Position numbers and translations under genes: made by a program. Positions 39,268-48,252 of a DNA stretch of 64,000 nt are shown piece after piece (the stretch's first letter is position 1; each line of letters opens with the position of its first letter). Source of the DNA: Acidobacteriota bacterium. GTDB lineage: Bacteria > Acidobacteriota > Terriglobia > UBA7540. Under the pieces are notes generated by a model. It saw only the letters and a program-made list of their open reading frames with translations. It made no database searches and was not told the DNA's origin. Where the stretch lies: NCBI GenBank assembly GCA_023474345.1, contig JAMCXS010000032.1, positions 1 to 64,000 on the forward strand, read 5' to 3'.

Positions 39268-41349
39268 TTAAACAGGGACCTTCTCTTCTTCGGTTCGGGG
39301 CTTGGCGCTCCCAATCTGCACCAGCTCCGTCTTGGGCTTTTTGAGTACCAGCTCCTCATAAAGCTGCCGAGCCTGCTTGGTCTCCCAATCGGCCTTGCGG
39401 CGGGCCCGTTCTTCTTCGGCTGCGGTCATGGGAATATCGTGCTCGCGCGCGCGGACCCGGGAGGCGTCCGCAGCGTTGATGGTAAGGGAGTGCTTGTAGT
39501 TTTCGAGCGGGACCTCTTTTCCGCGGGCGTAGATTTCATGCTTGCCGTGCGTCTTGTACCATTCGGCCACAGTGGCGTTCTTGTACATGTTCTCGATGAT
39601 CTGCCGCCAGCCGATGCCCGTATTGTACGCGCAGAAGGAAACCTCACCCAGTTGCGTGCCGTAAGGGATAATGCACATCTCGGTGCGCCGGAAGTCGTAG
39701 TTGAACAGATCCTGGAACCACATGCCGGCGATGAACAGGAAGTTCCAGGGGTCCGAGCGGCGCTTTAAGGTGTCATTAAGCGTGCGCTCAGGGCTGGAAG
39801 CGCCGTAATGCTTGTCGGCCCGCTTTTCGCCGGTCAGGGCGAACGACTTGTCAAACTTCCTCAGGATGTCGATCAGGGCCAGGCTGGGCGGCGCGCCAAA
39901 TGGATTGTAGTTCTTGAGCAGCGCCAAGGCCATCATGAGGTTCGAAAGCCACCTGCCGCGGCCCGCGTCCGTGATCTTCTGCATGTCTCTGACCAGGCCC
40001 GGAATGCTCAGAAATTGCGGAACCGGCGCCCATTCCCCGTTTTCCTTATTGATCATCAACGCGGTCCCAACTCCGCAATTGGGGTGGCAACTGCAGCTCA
40101 CCTGCCCCCATTCGGCTTCCGGACCGTGCACCAGGTCGGCGAAGTCAGCGAACGAACTCATCAGGGAGAGCGGGAACCAGTCGCGGGTCGGCTCGGTGAT
40201 GCCGAGCTGCTTTTTCACGTCCGCCGCCATGTGCGAGAGCGTGTAGCGCTGGCGCATGCGGCGCTCCGGAGTAACGTCTTCATCGCGCCCCGTGAACGAA
40301 ACCGGCTGGAAGGCGATGAAGGCAATCTTCTTGGGATTCTCGCGGGCGAAGTTGATGATCGGACCAACCTGGTCGTTGTTGACGCCGTTCACCAGCGTGG
40401 TCACCAGGATGATCTCGATGCCCGCTTCATGCATGTTGTCAATGGCCTTCAGCTTGACGTCGAACAGGTTGCCGACCTTGCGATGGCTGTTAGCGTCGTT
40501 GCCGATACCATCGAACTGCAGGTAGGCGTAACGGAGCCCCGCTTCAAAAGCCTGGCGGCAAAACTCTTTGCTTTTGGCGAACTCGATACCGTTGGTGGCC
40601 GCCTGCACGCTGTTAAACCCGAGCTTGCGGGCGTAACGAATGGCATCGATAAAGTACGGCGACATCGTGGGCTCGCCGCCGGAAAACTGCACGGACATCT
40701 GCCGCCGCGGCTTGATTTTTGTCGCGTTGTCCAGGATCTCCTTAATGTCTTCCCAGCTCAGCTCATGTACAAAACCCACCTGATTCGCGTCCATGAAGCA
40801 CGGATCGCACATCATGTTACAGCGGTTGGTCAGGTCCACCGTCAGTACAGAGCCCCGCCCGTGCCGAACAGTGCTTGAGCCGTGATTGTGCAGCGTCTCG
40901 TCATTGTGCGACCGGATGTCGCGCCCGGGGAAATTCTTCTCGATCCACTTCAGGAAGTTTACGTCGATCGCCATGATGTCTTCGAAATGGCCGTGAATCG
41001 GGCAATCCTTGACCATCCAGACTTGGCCGTCACGCTCGATGATTTGGGCCTTGATCTCGCCCACCTTTTCCGTCAAAAGCGACTTCCAATCCTGGTCCCC
41101 GCGCATAATTCTTGCGCGAGCTTCCTTCACGCAGCCCGGACAAAGCGAATCCGTCTCGCGCGGCCACCCCAGCCGCGGCTTGCTCTTCTGCCAGGATTTC
41201 AACATAGGTTTGTCCGACCACTTCGGTGTAAAGGCCGGCCTGGGATTGTATTTGTTGAAAAACTGGATGGAATTGAAAACTACGCCGGCGGTCCCGGTGA
41301 CCGCACGGTCGAAATATTTCATGACCCGCTGACCTCGAATACGTGGCAT
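39268..41349 (-). CDS. radical SAM protein related to MJ0619/Tes (tetraether lipid synthase type)
   Basis: The protein has 693 residues. A radical SAM cluster motif CNMMCDPC follows TVDLTNR near residue 180, with the SAM-binding FSGGEPTMSP downstream. The N-terminus has extra metal-site cysteines (SLCPGC and DCPIHGHFED) and the C-terminal half has SCSCHPNCGVGTAL and further Cys, the layout of the MJ0619/Tes family that joins lipid tails in archaea. Homologues in Acidobacteria have been proposed to make membrane-spanning or branched GDGT lipids. The first 30 residues include hydrophobic segments and basic residues. GAGAGGGG lies ten bases before the ATG at 41349. The lipid role is inferred; another radical SAM reaction remains possible. 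Confidence 0.78.
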   Translation of the reverse strand: MPRIRGQRVMKYFDRAVTGTAGVVFNSIQFFNKYNPRPAFTPKWSDKPMLKSWQKSKPRLGWPRETDSLCPGCVKEARARIMRGDQDWKSLLTEKVGEIKAQIIERDGQVWMVKDCPIHGHFEDIMAIDVNFLKWIEKNFPGRDIRSHNDETLHNHGSSTVRHGRGSVLTVDLTNRCNMMCDPCFMDANQVGFVHELSWEDIKEILDNATKIKPRRQMSVQFSGGEPTMSPYFIDAIRYARKLGFNSVQAATNGIEFAKSKEFCRQAFEAGLRYAYLQFDGIGNDANSHRKVGNLFDVKLKAIDNMHEAGIEIILVTTLVNGVNNDQVGPIINFARENPKKIAFIAFQPVSFTGRDEDVTPERRMRQRYTLSHMAADVKKQLGITEPTRDWFPLSLMSSFADFADLVHGPEAEWGQVSCSCHPNCGVGTALMINKENGEWAPVPQFLSIPGLVRDMQKITDAGRGRWLSNLMMALALLKNYNPFGAPPSLALIDILRKFDKSFALTGEKRADKHYGASSPERTLNDTLKRRSDPWNFLFIAGMWFQDLFNYDFRRTEMCIIPYGTQLGEVSFCAYNTGIGWRQIIENMYKNATVAEWYKTHGKHEIYARGKEVPLENYKHSLTINAADASRVRAREHDIPMTAAEEERARRKADWETKQARQLYEELVLKKPKTELVQIGSAKPRTEEEKVPV

Positions 41350-41911: not shown

Positions 41912-43249
41912 ATGTTGAAGCTCAACCTGCTCATAAAACAAAAGGCGCTAGAGGCCGGCTTTGACATGGTGGGGATCGCACCGGTCGGAGTCTGGAAGGA
42001 TTTGGACTTTGCGCGCCGGTGGGTCGAGCAGGGTTATGGCGGAGAGATGCACTATCTCCAAAACCCGAAGCGCGATGACCCGCGGCAGGTTCTTCCTTCC
42101 GCTCAATCCGTGGTTTGTGTTGGCCTGATTTATAACGCACCGCTCCCGTACTCAACCGAGGTCGCTGAGAAGGCCGCAATTGCTTCGGTCCATCCTGGGG
42201 TGAGCCAACGACCTCAATTTGCACAAGATCATTTGGAAGCGTTGACGCACGGCTGGATTTCCCGGTACGGCTGGGGGCAGGATTATCATGAAATCCTTCG
42301 CGCGAAACTGGAAGAATTAAGAAAGGCTATTGAAAGTGTGGCTTCCGGCGCGGAAACGCGCGTTTATGTGGATACCGGGCCGGTGGTCGAGCGCGCCTTT
42401 GCCCGCCACTCCGGCATTGGCTGGATGGGCAAGAACACCTGCCTGATTAACCAAACCAAAGGATCGTGGTTTTTCCTGGGGGTGCTCCTGACCAATCTGC
42501 AACTGGACCCCGACCTTCCGGCTGCCGATCGCTGCGGGTCCTGCACGCGCTGCCTGGATGCCTGTCCCACCGGAGCGCTGGTCAAACCTTATGTGATGGA
42601 TGCCTCCCGCTGCATTGCCTACTTCACCATCGAATTGAAGGACACCATTCCGGAAGAGTATCGGCCCGCCATCGGCTCTAACGTCTTTGGCTGTGACATC
42701 TGCCAGGATGTCTGCCCGTGGAACCAAAGAAAGGAAATCCAGGAATCAGGAATTCGACAGCCACAAGCGACAGATAATGGCCAGAGAAAGGGATTCGGAC
42801 GCGCTAATGCAGCGACAACAGACTTGCCAGCCTTCCAGCCGCTCGATGTAACGTTTCCGGCTTCTGTTGCCGGGCAATTGCCCTCCGTTCACGCTTCTCT
42901 CCCGAATGCGGCAGGGGTTGCTCAAGGCAAGGTAGATGACAGCTCAACCAGGACTGAGAACCCTACCTTCTCGCTCTTCAACCCTCCGCTCGAAGCTCTG
43001 GCCGAATTGGGCGAGGACGACTTCCGCCGCGCTTTTGCGCGCTCGCCCATCAAGCGCGCGAAATATCGTGGCTGGCTGCGCAACCTCTGCGTGGTGATGG
43101 GCAATTCCGGCAATCATCAGTTCATTCCTAAACTTAAAGAACTGGCGCGCCACGACGATCCCATCGTCCGCGAGCACGCTGAGTGGGCCATCAAGCAACT
43201 TGAGGTGACGGGTGCCCCGGAGGCGCCCGACCAAATCCAGGAGCTTTGA
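41912..43249 (+). CDS. queG: epoxyqueuosine reductase QueG
   Basis: QueG is a cobalamin- and [4Fe-4S]-dependent enzyme that reduces epoxyqueuosine to queuosine in tRNA. The two clusters are CGSCTRCLDACPTGAL and CDICQDVCPWNQ, and the B12/active-site region reads VDTGPVVERAFARHSGIGWM. C-terminal HEAT-like repeats follow (LCVVMGNSGNHQFIPKLKEL). The protein has 445 residues, longer than usual. A stretch of about 80 residues between CPWNQRK and NPPLEALAELG is Ser/Ala/Thr-rich where most family members have about 20, and a smaller insert lies after PYSTEV. The ATG at 41912 is the normal start. Confidence 0.94.
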   Translation: MLKLNLLIKQKALEAGFDMVGIAPVGVWKDLDFARRWVEQGYGGEMHYLQNPKRDDPRQVLPSAQSVVCVGLIYNAPLPYSTEVAEKAAIASVHPGVSQRPQFAQDHLEALTHGWISRYGWGQDYHEILRAKLEELRKAIESVASGAETRVYVDTGPVVERAFARHSGIGWMGKNTCLINQTKGSWFFLGVLLTNLQLDPDLPAADRCGSCTRCLDACPTGALVKPYVMDASRCIAYFTIELKDTIPEEYRPAIGSNVFGCDICQDVCPWNQRKEIQESGIRQPQATDNGQRKGFGRANAATTDLPAFQPLDVTFPASVAGQLPSVHASLPNAAGVAQGKVDDSSTRTENPTFSLFNPPLEALAELGEDDFRRAFARSPIKRAKYRGWLRNLCVVMGNSGNHQFIPKLKELARHDDPIVREHAEWAIKQLEVTGAPEAPDQIQEL

Positions 43250-45869: not shown

Positions 45870-46664
45870 TTATTTTCCAGTGGTGAACCGTCGTTCGATT
45901 GCCGCCCAATCGACGACGTTCCACCAGGCGGCAATGTATTCAGGCCGCCGATTCTGATACTTCAGGTAATAAGCGTGTTCCCAGACGTCCAGCCCCATCA
46001 CCGGGAACTTGCCCTCCATCAGGGGACTGTCCTGGTTGGCAGTGGAGTAGATGTCCAGCTTGCCGGATTTGTCCCTGACGAGCCACGCCCAGCCGGAACC
46101 GAAGCGGCCGGCTGCCGCGGCGCTGAACTTTTCCTTGAATTGCTCAAAGCCGCCGAAAGTGCCCCTGATGGCTTCCGCCAGCTTGCCGGTCGGCTGCCCA
46201 CCCTTCTTCGGTCCCATAATCGTCCAGAACATGGCATGGTTGACGTGGCCGCCGCCGTTGTTGCGAACGGTGGTCCGGATATTTTCCGGAACGATCGCAC
46301 AGTTGTTGGCAAGTAATTCCTCCACGGTCTTACCGGCCAGGTGGGGCGCCGATTCAAGCGCTTTGTTCAGGTTGTTTACATAAGCACCGTGGTGTTTGTC
46401 ATGGTGGATTTGCATTGTCATCTGGTCGATGTAGGGTTCCAACGCATCGCTTGCGTATGGCAGAGGAGGAACGGCAAAAGGCGTTGTGCCTCCTTTGGCA
46501 ATCCTTTTGCTGCCAGGTTTGGCGACTACTAGAAAAACGGTCGCGCCGCCGCCCGCAAGCTTGAAGAAATCGCGGCGACCGAGTTTTAAGGGACCGACGG
46601 GTGGCCCCAGGATTTCGTAACGACCGGGTTCGATACTAGGTTTCGGAATTCGCCCTTTGTTCAT
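45870..46664 (-). CDS. superoxide dismutase (Fe/Mn) fused to a Tat leader from an oxidoreductase
   Basis: The protein has 264 residues. From about residue 55 it is an Fe/Mn superoxide dismutase with all four metal ligands (first His in [11 protein letters not shown], His in NHAMFW, and Asp and His in DVWEHAYY). The first about 50 residues ([15 protein letters not shown], then [15 protein letters not shown]) are not SOD. They match the N-terminus of the large subunit of isoquinoline-1-oxidoreductase-type molybdenum enzymes, with a twin-arginine motif. There is no clear cleavage site, so it may stay anchored. It overlaps a decayed ferredoxin gene by four bases, as large and small subunits do in such operons. 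Its 3' two thirds are almost identical to the SOD at 47036. Confidence 0.85.
45871..46380. repeat. near-identical duplication, copy 1 (with 47037-47546)
   Basis: The segment aligns without gaps to 47037-47546 (constant offset 1166). I count about six mismatches in the first 490 bp, while the 5' parts of the two genes beyond it differ strongly. The flank after both stop codons also shows similarity (TACAGGCT...GTAACCCGC). This pattern fits gene duplication with later conversion or a recent partial duplication. Confidence 0.85.
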
Positions 46665-47035: not shown

Positions 47036-47686
47036 CTATTTTCCAGCGGTGAACCGTCGTTCGATTGCCGCCCAATCGACGACGTTCCACCAGGCGGCAA
47101 TGTATTCAGGCCGCCGATTCTGATACTTCAGGTAATAAGCGTGTTCCCAGACGTCCAGCCCCATCACCGGGAACTTGCCCTCCATCAGGGGACTGTCCTG
47201 GTTGGCAGTGGAGTAGATGTCCAGCTTGCCGGATTTGTCCCTGACGAGCCACGCCCAGCCGGAACCGAAGCGGCCGGCTGCCGCGGCGCTGAACTTTTCC
47301 TTGAATTGCTCAAAGCCGCCGAAAGTGCCCCTGATGGCTTCCGCCAGCTTGCCGGTCGGCTGCCCACCCTTCTTCGGTCCCATAATCGTCCAGAACATGG
47401 CATGGTTGACGTGGCCGCCGCCGTTGTTGCGAACGGCGGTCCGGATATTTTCCGGAACGATCGCACAGTTGTTGGCCAGCAATTCCTCCACGGTCTTACC
47501 GGCCAGGTGGGGCGCCGATTCAAGCGCCTTGTTCAGATTGTTTACGTATCCCCCATGGTGTTTGCCATGGTGAATCTCCATGGTTAGCTTGTCGATGTAC
47601 GGCTCCAAAGCATCTGCCGCATACGGCAGAGCAGGAAGAGAAAACGGCATTACGCCTCCTTTTGCAGTAGCAGGTGAAGTTCCCAT
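47036..47686 (-). CDS. superoxide dismutase (Fe/Mn)
   Basis: This protein of about 216 residues is a cytoplasmic Fe/Mn superoxide dismutase that disproportionates superoxide. The ligands are in [17 protein letters not shown] and DVWEHAYY. The ATG at 47686 has AGGAGGGAATT upstream, an excellent ribosome binding site; the frame extends to 47731. The start [20 protein letters not shown] is the ordinary SOD beginning; the copy at 46664 joins its leader just before the corresponding AKGG. Metal preference (Fe or Mn) cannot be told from the sequence. Confidence 0.94.
47037..47546. repeat. near-identical duplication, copy 2 (with 45871-46380)
   Basis: This is the second copy of the SOD 3' region described at 45871-46380. 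Beyond 47546 the two genes differ in most positions, including the metal-site His region (KHHGGYV here, KHHGAYV there). Confidence 0.85.
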
Positions 47687-48252
47687 AATTCCCTCCTTTT
47701 TTGTACACAAGCGTTTTCGGGCAGCCTCCAAGGAACAAAAGCCGCCTTCTAAGTGCCGTCAGTCACCCGGCACGGGAGAAGTAAAATTGCTCCCTTTACT
47801 GTCCAGCCAGAGACTCACCCCTCAGGCCGGACAACATGGCTCCTCGCCCAAGAAAACAATCGTCGTGGTTCTTTGCCCCACTTTCCCCTCTATTTTTACA
47901 GTCTATCACAGGCGCGGGAGATCGGATAAAAGGCGGTCGGCCGCTGGAGGTTTGCTTTTATATTCTTATTGTACCCGGCAGGAAATCCTGCTACGTCTGG
48001 GACTCGGACTTGACGCCAAACAAGCCCGCCCAGCGAGGGCAACGCTGGTTTTTCCAACACCAGCGAGCAAGGTGGAAAGGTGAACTCGCTTCGTTGGGTT
48101 TACTTCAGGAAGCAATGACGCCCCCGGAGCTTTAGCGCTGGCATCCCCACCGCCGGGCTTCAGCGCCGGGGACAGTGCCGCTACAGGAAAGAACGTCACG
48201 ATATTTTGCAATCCTCGATAATTTCTTCTGGAGATGCACAAATAGCCGCCGC
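47687..48252. other. intergenic region upstream of the SOD gene
   Basis: It contains the promoter of the SOD gene and the extended repeat at 48128-48222. The short ORFs here have no recognisable product. Confidence 0.5.
48128..48222. repeat. dispersed palindromic repeat, extended form
   Basis: TTTAGCGCTGGCATCCCCAC ... GACAGTGCCGCTACA is followed by GAACGTCACGATATTTTGCA and ATCCTCGATAA, the same 3' extension seen at 25884-25930. Confidence 0.75.

What the first reader, a model, noticed from the sequence alone, without database searches (positions are those of the whole stretch)
39268..41349. Tes/MJ0619-like radical SAM enzyme, candidate for membrane-spanning lipid synthesis
The 693-residue protein has one canonical radical SAM cluster plus N- and C-terminal metal-site cysteines (SLCPGC, DCPIHGHFED, SCSCHPNCGVG), the layout of archaeal tetraether synthase. 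It lacks the CPxNCGxC-like block usually found just before the radical SAM motif; that region reads SHNDETLHNHG instead. Acidobacteria are suspected producers of branched GDGTs and iso-diabolic acid, so this gene is a specific candidate, and the altered Cys pattern could mean a different cluster count or reaction.
Basis: partly seen in the sequence, partly recalled or inferred. Interest (0 to 1): 0.62.

Follow-up and report, generated by a model that had tools for sequence, protein, structure and literature searches.

The report
Acidobacterial Tes-like lipid-coupling enzyme candidate
The gene encodes a bacterial cousin of the archaeal enzyme that welds lipid tails into membrane-spanning lipids; it is a strong but unproven candidate for the enzyme that makes iso-diabolic acid, a major membrane lipid of Acidobacteria whose maker is not known.

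Summary
The minus-strand gene 39268-41349 encodes a 693-residue radical SAM protein whose closest solved relative is archaeal tetraether synthase Tes (7TOL/7TOM). It keeps the rubredoxin site, the SAM cluster and the catalytic C-cluster set (three Cys, Met439, Tyr459 equivalents). It lacks all three cysteines of the N-terminal [Fe4S4] cluster. That loss marks a clade: 64 of 64 clade A+B homologs lack them, 20 of 20 acidobacterial Tes-proper ("D") proteins keep them. A+B form one branch inside bacterial Tes and this protein scores below the curated Tes cut-off (315.6 of 450 bits).

Best reading: a Tes-type lipid-tail coupling enzyme making iso-diabolic acid. Support: Edaphobacter modestus DSM 18101 makes 30.4% iso-diabolic acid; clade A is its only detectable Tes-family gene. 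Clade A lies beside ether-lipid-type ester reductase genes in three genomes and co-occurs with an undescribed radical SAM gene, "rSAM2" (86 of 112 against 4 of 185).

Against: no activity shown; Mss not testable; the window's genome (75% complete) shows no rSAM2 or reductase. Zeng 2022 already proposed bacterial Tes homologs for branched GDGTs; the cluster-lacking subfamily and its partners seem new.

The parts
39268..41349 (-). Whole gene, 693 aa plus stop: Tes-like radical SAM protein (clade A)
41143..41349 (-). N-terminal extension (residues 1-69) with a long predicted helix (2-32) and the conserved FTPKWSDKPLLKS-like stretch; true start perhaps at residue 10
40993..41142 (-). Rubredoxin-like site C70-x2-C73 ... 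C116-x2-H119
   Evidence: Mj ligands from PMC9433317 passages
40879..40911 (-). Stretch SHNDETLHNHG (147-157) standing where Tes has the [Fe4S4]N cysteines C73, C77, C80; H156 kept in 64 of 64 A+B
40798..40821 (-). Radical SAM cluster motif C177-x3-C181-x2-C184
40285..40311 (-). FQPVSFTGR (347-355), SAM-binding loop equal to Mj Q268/S271/R275
   Evidence: PMC9433317 passages
40072..40098 (-). SCSCHPNCG (418-426): C425 aligns with Mj C338; C419 and C421 are extra cysteines kept in 64 of 64 A+B
39721..39723 (-). M543, equal to the labile cluster ligand Met439 of Tes
39631..39675 (-). C559 ... Y563 ... C573, equal to Mj C455, Tyr459, C470 of the C-terminal cluster domain
39271..39543 (-). C-terminal extension (603-693); clade D has at most 28 residues here

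Best explanation
The protein is a Tes-family radical SAM enzyme that joins the terminal carbons of two iso-C15 acyl chains, most likely of ester-linked phospholipids, to give iso-diabolic acid membrane-spanning lipids. By homology the SAM cluster makes a 5'-deoxyadenosyl radical that takes H from a terminal methyl group; the alkyl radical is parked on a sulfur of the C-terminal [Fe4S4] cluster; a second radical attacks it and the C-C bond forms. The N-terminal auxiliary cluster of Tes has been lost, once, in the ancestor of the clade. The predicted metal content is two [Fe4S4] plus one rubredoxin-type iron, against three plus one in Tes. Shown here: homology, fold, the conserved and lost residues, the clade, the genomic associations. 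Inferred: substrate, product and mechanism. Not shown: any activity.
For: Closest solved relative is Tes (Z 21.9, 428 residues aligned, next family MoaA 12.8). Rubredoxin, RS, Q268/S271/R275, Met439 and three C-cluster Cys equivalents are kept in all 64 A+B sequences, Tyr459 in 63 of 64 (numbering). The reaction of Tes and the conservation of Met439 and Tyr459 come from PMC9433317 passages. E. modestus DSM 18101 (G303) has one Tes-family gene at E<=1e-18, no PF09989, and 30.4% iso-diabolic acid in the same strain (PMC11354219 table); E. lichenicola has the same gene set in another strain (M8UP22) and its type strain has 11.8%. C. validum, identified here because G096:C2 is 1,000,103 bp as published, has clade A and iso-diabolic acid as a primary fatty acid. 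All 33 'same class' genomes in the phylum sample carry it, and groups SD1 and SD3 make iso-diabolic acid (PMC13274423 passages). Clade A lies directly beside a two-gene PlsA/Ger-type pair in G325 and G395 and in the same cluster in G362; a clade D Tes in G203 has a related pair next to it.
Against: No activity has been shown for any bacterial Tes homolog in the papers I saw. Clade A scores below the Tes cut-off. Its neighbours are mostly housekeeping genes in the loci I compared, and in this window none that I looked at is lipid-related. The window's genome shows neither PF09989 nor rSAM2, though it is 75% complete. Mss could not be looked for: I had no Mss sequence, and T. maritima, an Mss organism, does not ring with the Tes model at E<=1e-18. 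C. validum has two further Tes-like genes. The model has pLDDT under 50 at 149-168, 173-177 and 553-559, so the metal sites were not tested structurally.
Confidence: 0.66

Rival explanations
1. Another enzyme (an Mss homolog, or rSAM2) joins the fatty acid tails in Acidobacteria and clade A does a later or different lipid step such as cross-bridging or modification.
For: Mss is the bacterial enzyme credited with this step (PMC13274423 passages) and its homologs were reported in 11 of 97 acidobacterial MAGs (PMC11868695 passages). rSAM2 is almost as universal as clade A in the window's class (32 of 33).
Against: The catalytic C-cluster set of Tes is complete in clade A; rSAM2 shows only general radical SAM similarity.
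Confidence: 0.14
2. The canonical Tes of Acidobacteria (clade D) is the membrane-spanning lipid synthase and clade A is an accessory or diverged paralog.
For: D scores above the Tes cut-off (575-584 bits), adjoins clade A in G265, G371 and G390 and tracks a PlsA/Ger-like protein (34 of 35 against 2 of 66).
Against: No D-level match in any of the 12 named SD1 genomes searched and D in only 3 of 30 f2 genomes, a group rich in iso-diabolic acid; clade A residues show no sign of decay.
Confidence: 0.09
3. A pterin methyltransferase (HMPTM), as MJ0619 was once described, or another non-lipid reaction.
For: Pfam HMPTM zinc ribbon hit.
Against: Lloyd et al. could not corroborate the earlier proposal and found two lipids in the pocket (PMC9433317 passages); clade A lies in lipid-type gene clusters in three genomes.
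Confidence: 0.06

Closest known systems
Archaeal tetraether synthase Tes / GDGT-MAS (MJ0619; PDB 7TOL, 7TOM; NCBIfam NF045702)
   Same: Fold, rubredoxin site, radical SAM cluster, C-terminal cluster ligands, Met439, Tyr459, SAM-binding loop
   Different: No [Fe4S4]N cysteines; two extra cysteines at 419 and 421; N- and C-terminal extensions; below the curated cut-off; bacterial, so a fatty-acyl rather than phytanyl substrate is expected
Bacterial Tes homologs of Zeng et al. 2022 (PMC8941075), incl. Edaphobacter aggregans (32%), Koribacter (42%), Solibacter (40%)
   Same: Same family; the E. aggregans homolog is probably a member of clade A, by its low identity and because the related Edaphobacter genomes searched have only this clade (inference)
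   Different: The passages I read do not separate the cluster-lacking clade from Tes proper; I did not see the supplementary alignments
Mss, membrane-spanning lipid synthase of Thermotogota and Bacillota
   Same: Same kind of proposed product (diabolic acids); reported to share Tes architecture (PMC13274423 passages)
   Different: Sequence not available here; not compared
TrsS (NF045646) and other MJ0619-like radical SAM proteins
   Same: Related N-terminal half and radical SAM core (219.9 bits)
   Different: Far below its cut-off of 490; best match covers residues 90-383 only

Membership tests
Tes (tetraether lipid synthase) | Curated whole-protein cut-off of NF045702 (450 bits) | tested here: not met
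   315.6 bits; clade D genes reach 575-584
Tes (tetraether lipid synthase) | [Fe4S4]N ligands C73, C77, C80 | tested here: not met
   Absent in this protein and in 64 of 64 A+B; present in 20 of 20 D
Tes (tetraether lipid synthase) | Radical SAM CX3CX2C | tested here: met
   C177, C181, C184
Tes (tetraether lipid synthase) | Rubredoxin-type site Cx2C...Cx2H | tested here: met
   C70, C73, C116, H119; 64 of 64
Tes (tetraether lipid synthase) | C-terminal cluster: three Cys plus Met439, and Tyr459 | tested here: met
   C425, C559, C573, M543, Y563; which Mj cysteines bind the cluster is inferred from conservation
Tes (tetraether lipid synthase) | Overall fold | tested here: met
   7TOM Z 21.9, rmsd 3.8, 428 aligned; cluster loops of low confidence
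Tes (tetraether lipid synthase) | Couples two sp3 lipid tail carbons | not testable with these tools
   Needs biochemistry
Mss | Sequence relation to Mss | not tested
   No Mss sequence could be obtained
TrsS (NF045646) | Curated cut-off 490 bits | tested here: not met
   219.9 bits
HMPTM zinc ribbon (PF23545) | Domain above gathering score 27 | tested here: met
   53.2 bits, residues 63-126; the domain covers the rubredoxin site shared with Tes and does not show pterin activity

The most novel reading that the evidence does not exclude
Clade A is one half of a two-protein coupling system: having lost its own N-terminal auxiliary cluster, it works with the separate radical SAM protein rSAM2, which supplies or recycles electrons or does a second step, to make iso-diabolic acid. 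[quoted passage not shown]
Probability: 0.2. Interest if true: 0.78.

Novelty: new variant of a known kind. Interest (0 to 1): 0.63.

Why it matters
Branched GDGTs and iso-diabolic acid are the basis of widely used soil and lake temperature and pH proxies, yet the acidobacterial gene that makes them is not known. A single gene, present in nearly all genomes of the producing groups examined and alone of its family in an isolate with 30% iso-diabolic acid, makes the question testable by one deletion. Loss of a whole iron-sulfur cluster while the catalytic set stays would also show what the auxiliary [Fe4S4]N cluster of Tes is, and is not, needed for; Lloyd et al. write that the roles of the remaining metallocofactors are not clear (PMC9433317 passage).

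Tried and rejected
Reading the gene on the plus strand failed. A conserved operon around clade A in general: none found; neighbours are QueG, MutY, an RlpA-like protein and a HIT-like protein (RlpA and HIT names recalled from sequence and domain). Testing Solibacter usitatus, which makes branched GDGTs but no detectable iso-diabolic acid (PMC10087280 passages): no genome of its size and contiguity was among the 237 of its family, so the telling case could not be checked. Mss: no sequence available. HpnH as the identity of rSAM2: rejected, no DUF3463 hit and no HpnH model among its NCBIfam hits (that HpnH carries that domain is recalled). Occurrence of clade A outside Acidobacteriota: not tested, because only the best 80 of 582 relatives were returned. 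No structural conclusion is drawn on the replaced HxHG stretch, whose confidence is under 50.

Associations rest on genomes that share ancestry; the Fisher values are not corrected for that. 'Type I' of PF09989 was defined after seeing the scores; the undivided test is 35 of 35 clade D genomes with PF09989 against 25 of 66 others. D presence includes fragments, and clade A presence in the phylum set includes fragments at 60% identity or more. Outside Bryobacteraceae the D-reductase link fails in family f5 (G100, G018, G002 have D and no PF09989), and G257 has a type-I-like protein with no D seen.

Full report
What is there. The gene lies on the minus strand, 41349 down to 39268, 693 codons. 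Pfam finds Radical_SAM (173-335) and the HMPTM zinc ribbon (63-126). The best NCBIfam model is Tes, 315.6 bits against a cut-off of 450, then TrsS, 219.9 against 490. Among solved structures M. jannaschii Tes (7TOL) leads at 4.1e-64; the next, MoaA, is at 3e-8. An AlphaFold2 model from 51 sequences (pLDDT 73.6, pTM 0.81) matches 7TOM with Z 21.9 over 428 residues; MoaA follows with 12.8. The cluster loops have low confidence, so the model does not test the metal sites.

Metal sites. The Tes paper (PMC9433317, passages) gives the ligands: rubredoxin C9, C12, C33, H36; [Fe4S4]N C73, C77, C80 and a histidine; RS cluster CX3CX2C; C-terminal cluster with labile Met439; Tyr459 strictly conserved in archaea. 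Read off the alignment, these numbers fall on the expected letters with an offset of 20. I aligned 84 homologs from acidobacterial genomes with MjTes. They fall into 47 clade A, 17 clade B and 20 clade D by score to the window protein. All 20 D have the CPxxCGxC block; none of the 64 A+B has it. All 64 keep the rubredoxin ligands, RS cysteines, Q268, S271, R275, Met439 and the three C-cluster cysteines; 63 keep Tyr459. All 64 have cysteines at both 419 and 421 (7 and 12 of 20 D have one there), and a histidine at 156 where all D have cysteine (the exact alignment of this short stretch is uncertain).

Tree. In a quick maximum-likelihood tree of 84 rows A+B (with one degenerate paralog) form one side of a branch with support 100 and a long stem (1.84), inside the bacterial Tes group, next to D proteins of families f5 and f52; MjTes lies outside the bacterial set except for two D rows, L105 and L106. 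The program warns of long branches, so the exact sister is unsure. Clade B and D labels are score classes, not clean clades: two B rows (L044, L104) fall with A.

Distribution. In 297 genomes of the phylum 166 have a family match at E<=1e-40; 112 of these are clade A by identity of 60% or more, fragments included (list and count). The 33 listed genomes of the window's class all match; genomes without a match are listed in order of kinship and begin with another class. Two equal named genomes by coordinates: Granulicella rosea (G202) and Edaphobacter lichenicola (G163). A scan of named genomes returned the best 80 of 582 relatives: 78 are labelled as Acidobacteria or genera of them and two are labelled Rhodanobacteraceae, probably mis-binned. 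In Bryobacteraceae 214 of 237 genomes match at E<=1e-60.

Link to lipids, by strain. PMC11354219 (passages) gives iso-diabolic acid as 30.4% of fatty acids in E. modestus DSM 18101, 11.8% in E. lichenicola DSM 104462 and 26.4% in E. aggregans, with no glycerol ethers detected. The genome of E. modestus DSM 18101 (L120, G303) has one Tes-family match at E<=1e-18, clade A. Of the 12 named SD1 genomes, 9 have only clade A at that level; G299 has two further weak pieces, G307 one further weak match (67.8 bits), G308 (Acidicapsa dinghuensis) a paralog that has lost the C-cluster cysteines. None of the 12 has PF09989. Chloracidobacterium validum, recognised by its 1,000,103-bp second chromosome, has clade A and iso-diabolic acid, but also two other Tes-like genes. 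Against over-reading: the Mss enzyme was not testable, since T. maritima does not ring with the Tes model at this threshold.

Link to lipids, by neighbourhood. In G395 (L206) one strand carries, in order, a 553-aa protein, a 1187-aa protein with two BadF/BcrA domain stretches and PF09989, clade A, and a 361-aa radical SAM protein ('rSAM2'); G325 (L205) has the same order, G362 (L207) the same genes with clade A reversed. Two PF01869 domains are what PMC13274423 (passages) uses to mark glycerol ester reductase Ger. A clade D Tes in G203 (L094) has a related pair beside it. rSAM2 is found in 90 of 297 phylum genomes; 86 of these have clade A, and 0 of 54 genomes with only other family members have it. 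It adjoins clade A within 0.5 kb on the same strand in G267, G242, G132, G259 and G009 (coordinates), and is next to it in L160. It is not always there: 26 of 112 clade A genomes lack a match, the window's genome included. In 101 Bryobacteraceae 92 have rSAM2; of the 9 without, 6 also lack clade A, against 9 of 92 (p 0.0003). Its function is unknown; database hits are only general radical SAM. That one radical SAM enzyme can pass electrons to another was shown in vitro for unrelated enzymes (PMC10470005, passages); nothing shows it here.

Two lines of synthesis? In the same 101 genomes clade D goes with PF09989 in 35 of 35, against 25 of 66 without D; with the larger-scoring type alone 34 of 35 against 2 of 66. 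Clade A shows no such tie (28 of 86 against 8 of 15, p 0.15). This suggests D plus reductase for ether lipids and clade A for ester-bound iso-diabolic acid. It is a pattern, not proof, and it does not hold in family f5; and clade A itself sits beside a reductase of the other type in three genomes, so it may also serve ether lipids there.

Known or new. Zeng et al. 2022 (PMC8941075, passages) counted 456 bacterial Tes homologs, named E. aggregans, Koribacter and Solibacter, and proposed them for branched GDGTs; Halamka et al. (PMC10087280, passages) proposed them for S. usitatus; PMC11868695 (passages) notes that their activity has not been confirmed. My searches (open-licence papers only, no supplements, no preprints) showed no paper that describes the cluster-lacking clade, rSAM2 or the clade A-reductase cluster. 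The protein is filed as a Tes-like variant, not as Tes: two tested Tes features are not met.

Noticed in passing
window 45870-46664 (-) and 47036-47731 (-): Two superoxide-dismutase-like genes with nearly identical C-terminal parts close together, a recent duplication or conversion (name recalled from the sequence).
   Followed up: no
L067, L194, L195; L068, L069: Clade A and a canonical Tes (clade D) gene stand in tandem in G265, G371 and G390 and a few kb apart in G121 and G073.
   Followed up: partly
101 Bryobacteraceae genomes: Clade D Tes co-occurs almost perfectly with a roughly 1020-1080-aa PF09989/PF01869 protein, a candidate ether-lipid gene set.
   Followed up: partly
L206:5375-6460 (-), L207:10424-11563 (-): Undescribed 360-380-aa radical SAM family (rSAM2) that tracks clade A and in several lineages adjoins it.
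   Followed up: partly
L101:6221-10041: Clade B gene preceded by an Rrf2 regulator and a PHP-domain protein; a related PHP gene also precedes clade D in L087, L088 and L090.
   Followed up: partly
L187:1736-3625 (-): Acidicapsa dinghuensis paralog that keeps the radical SAM motif but has lost the C-cluster cysteines, perhaps with another role.
   Followed up: no
L114, L123: Records labelled Rhodanobacteraceae carry clade A genes 87-89% identical to that of an Acidobacteriaceae genome; probably mis-binned contigs.
   Followed up: no
G000: The window's clade A protein is closest (75%) to genomes outside its stated class (f44, f65, f8) and only about 64% to its class mates (f2), which hints at transfer or at an unsure placement of this assembly.
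   Followed up: no
L188, L189, L190: Chloracidobacterium-type genomes carry two further Tes-like radical SAM genes that keep the [Fe4S4]N cysteines.
   Followed up: no
window 41912-43249 (+): A QueG-like gene stands divergently next to clade A, as in seven of the other loci compared.
   Followed up: partly
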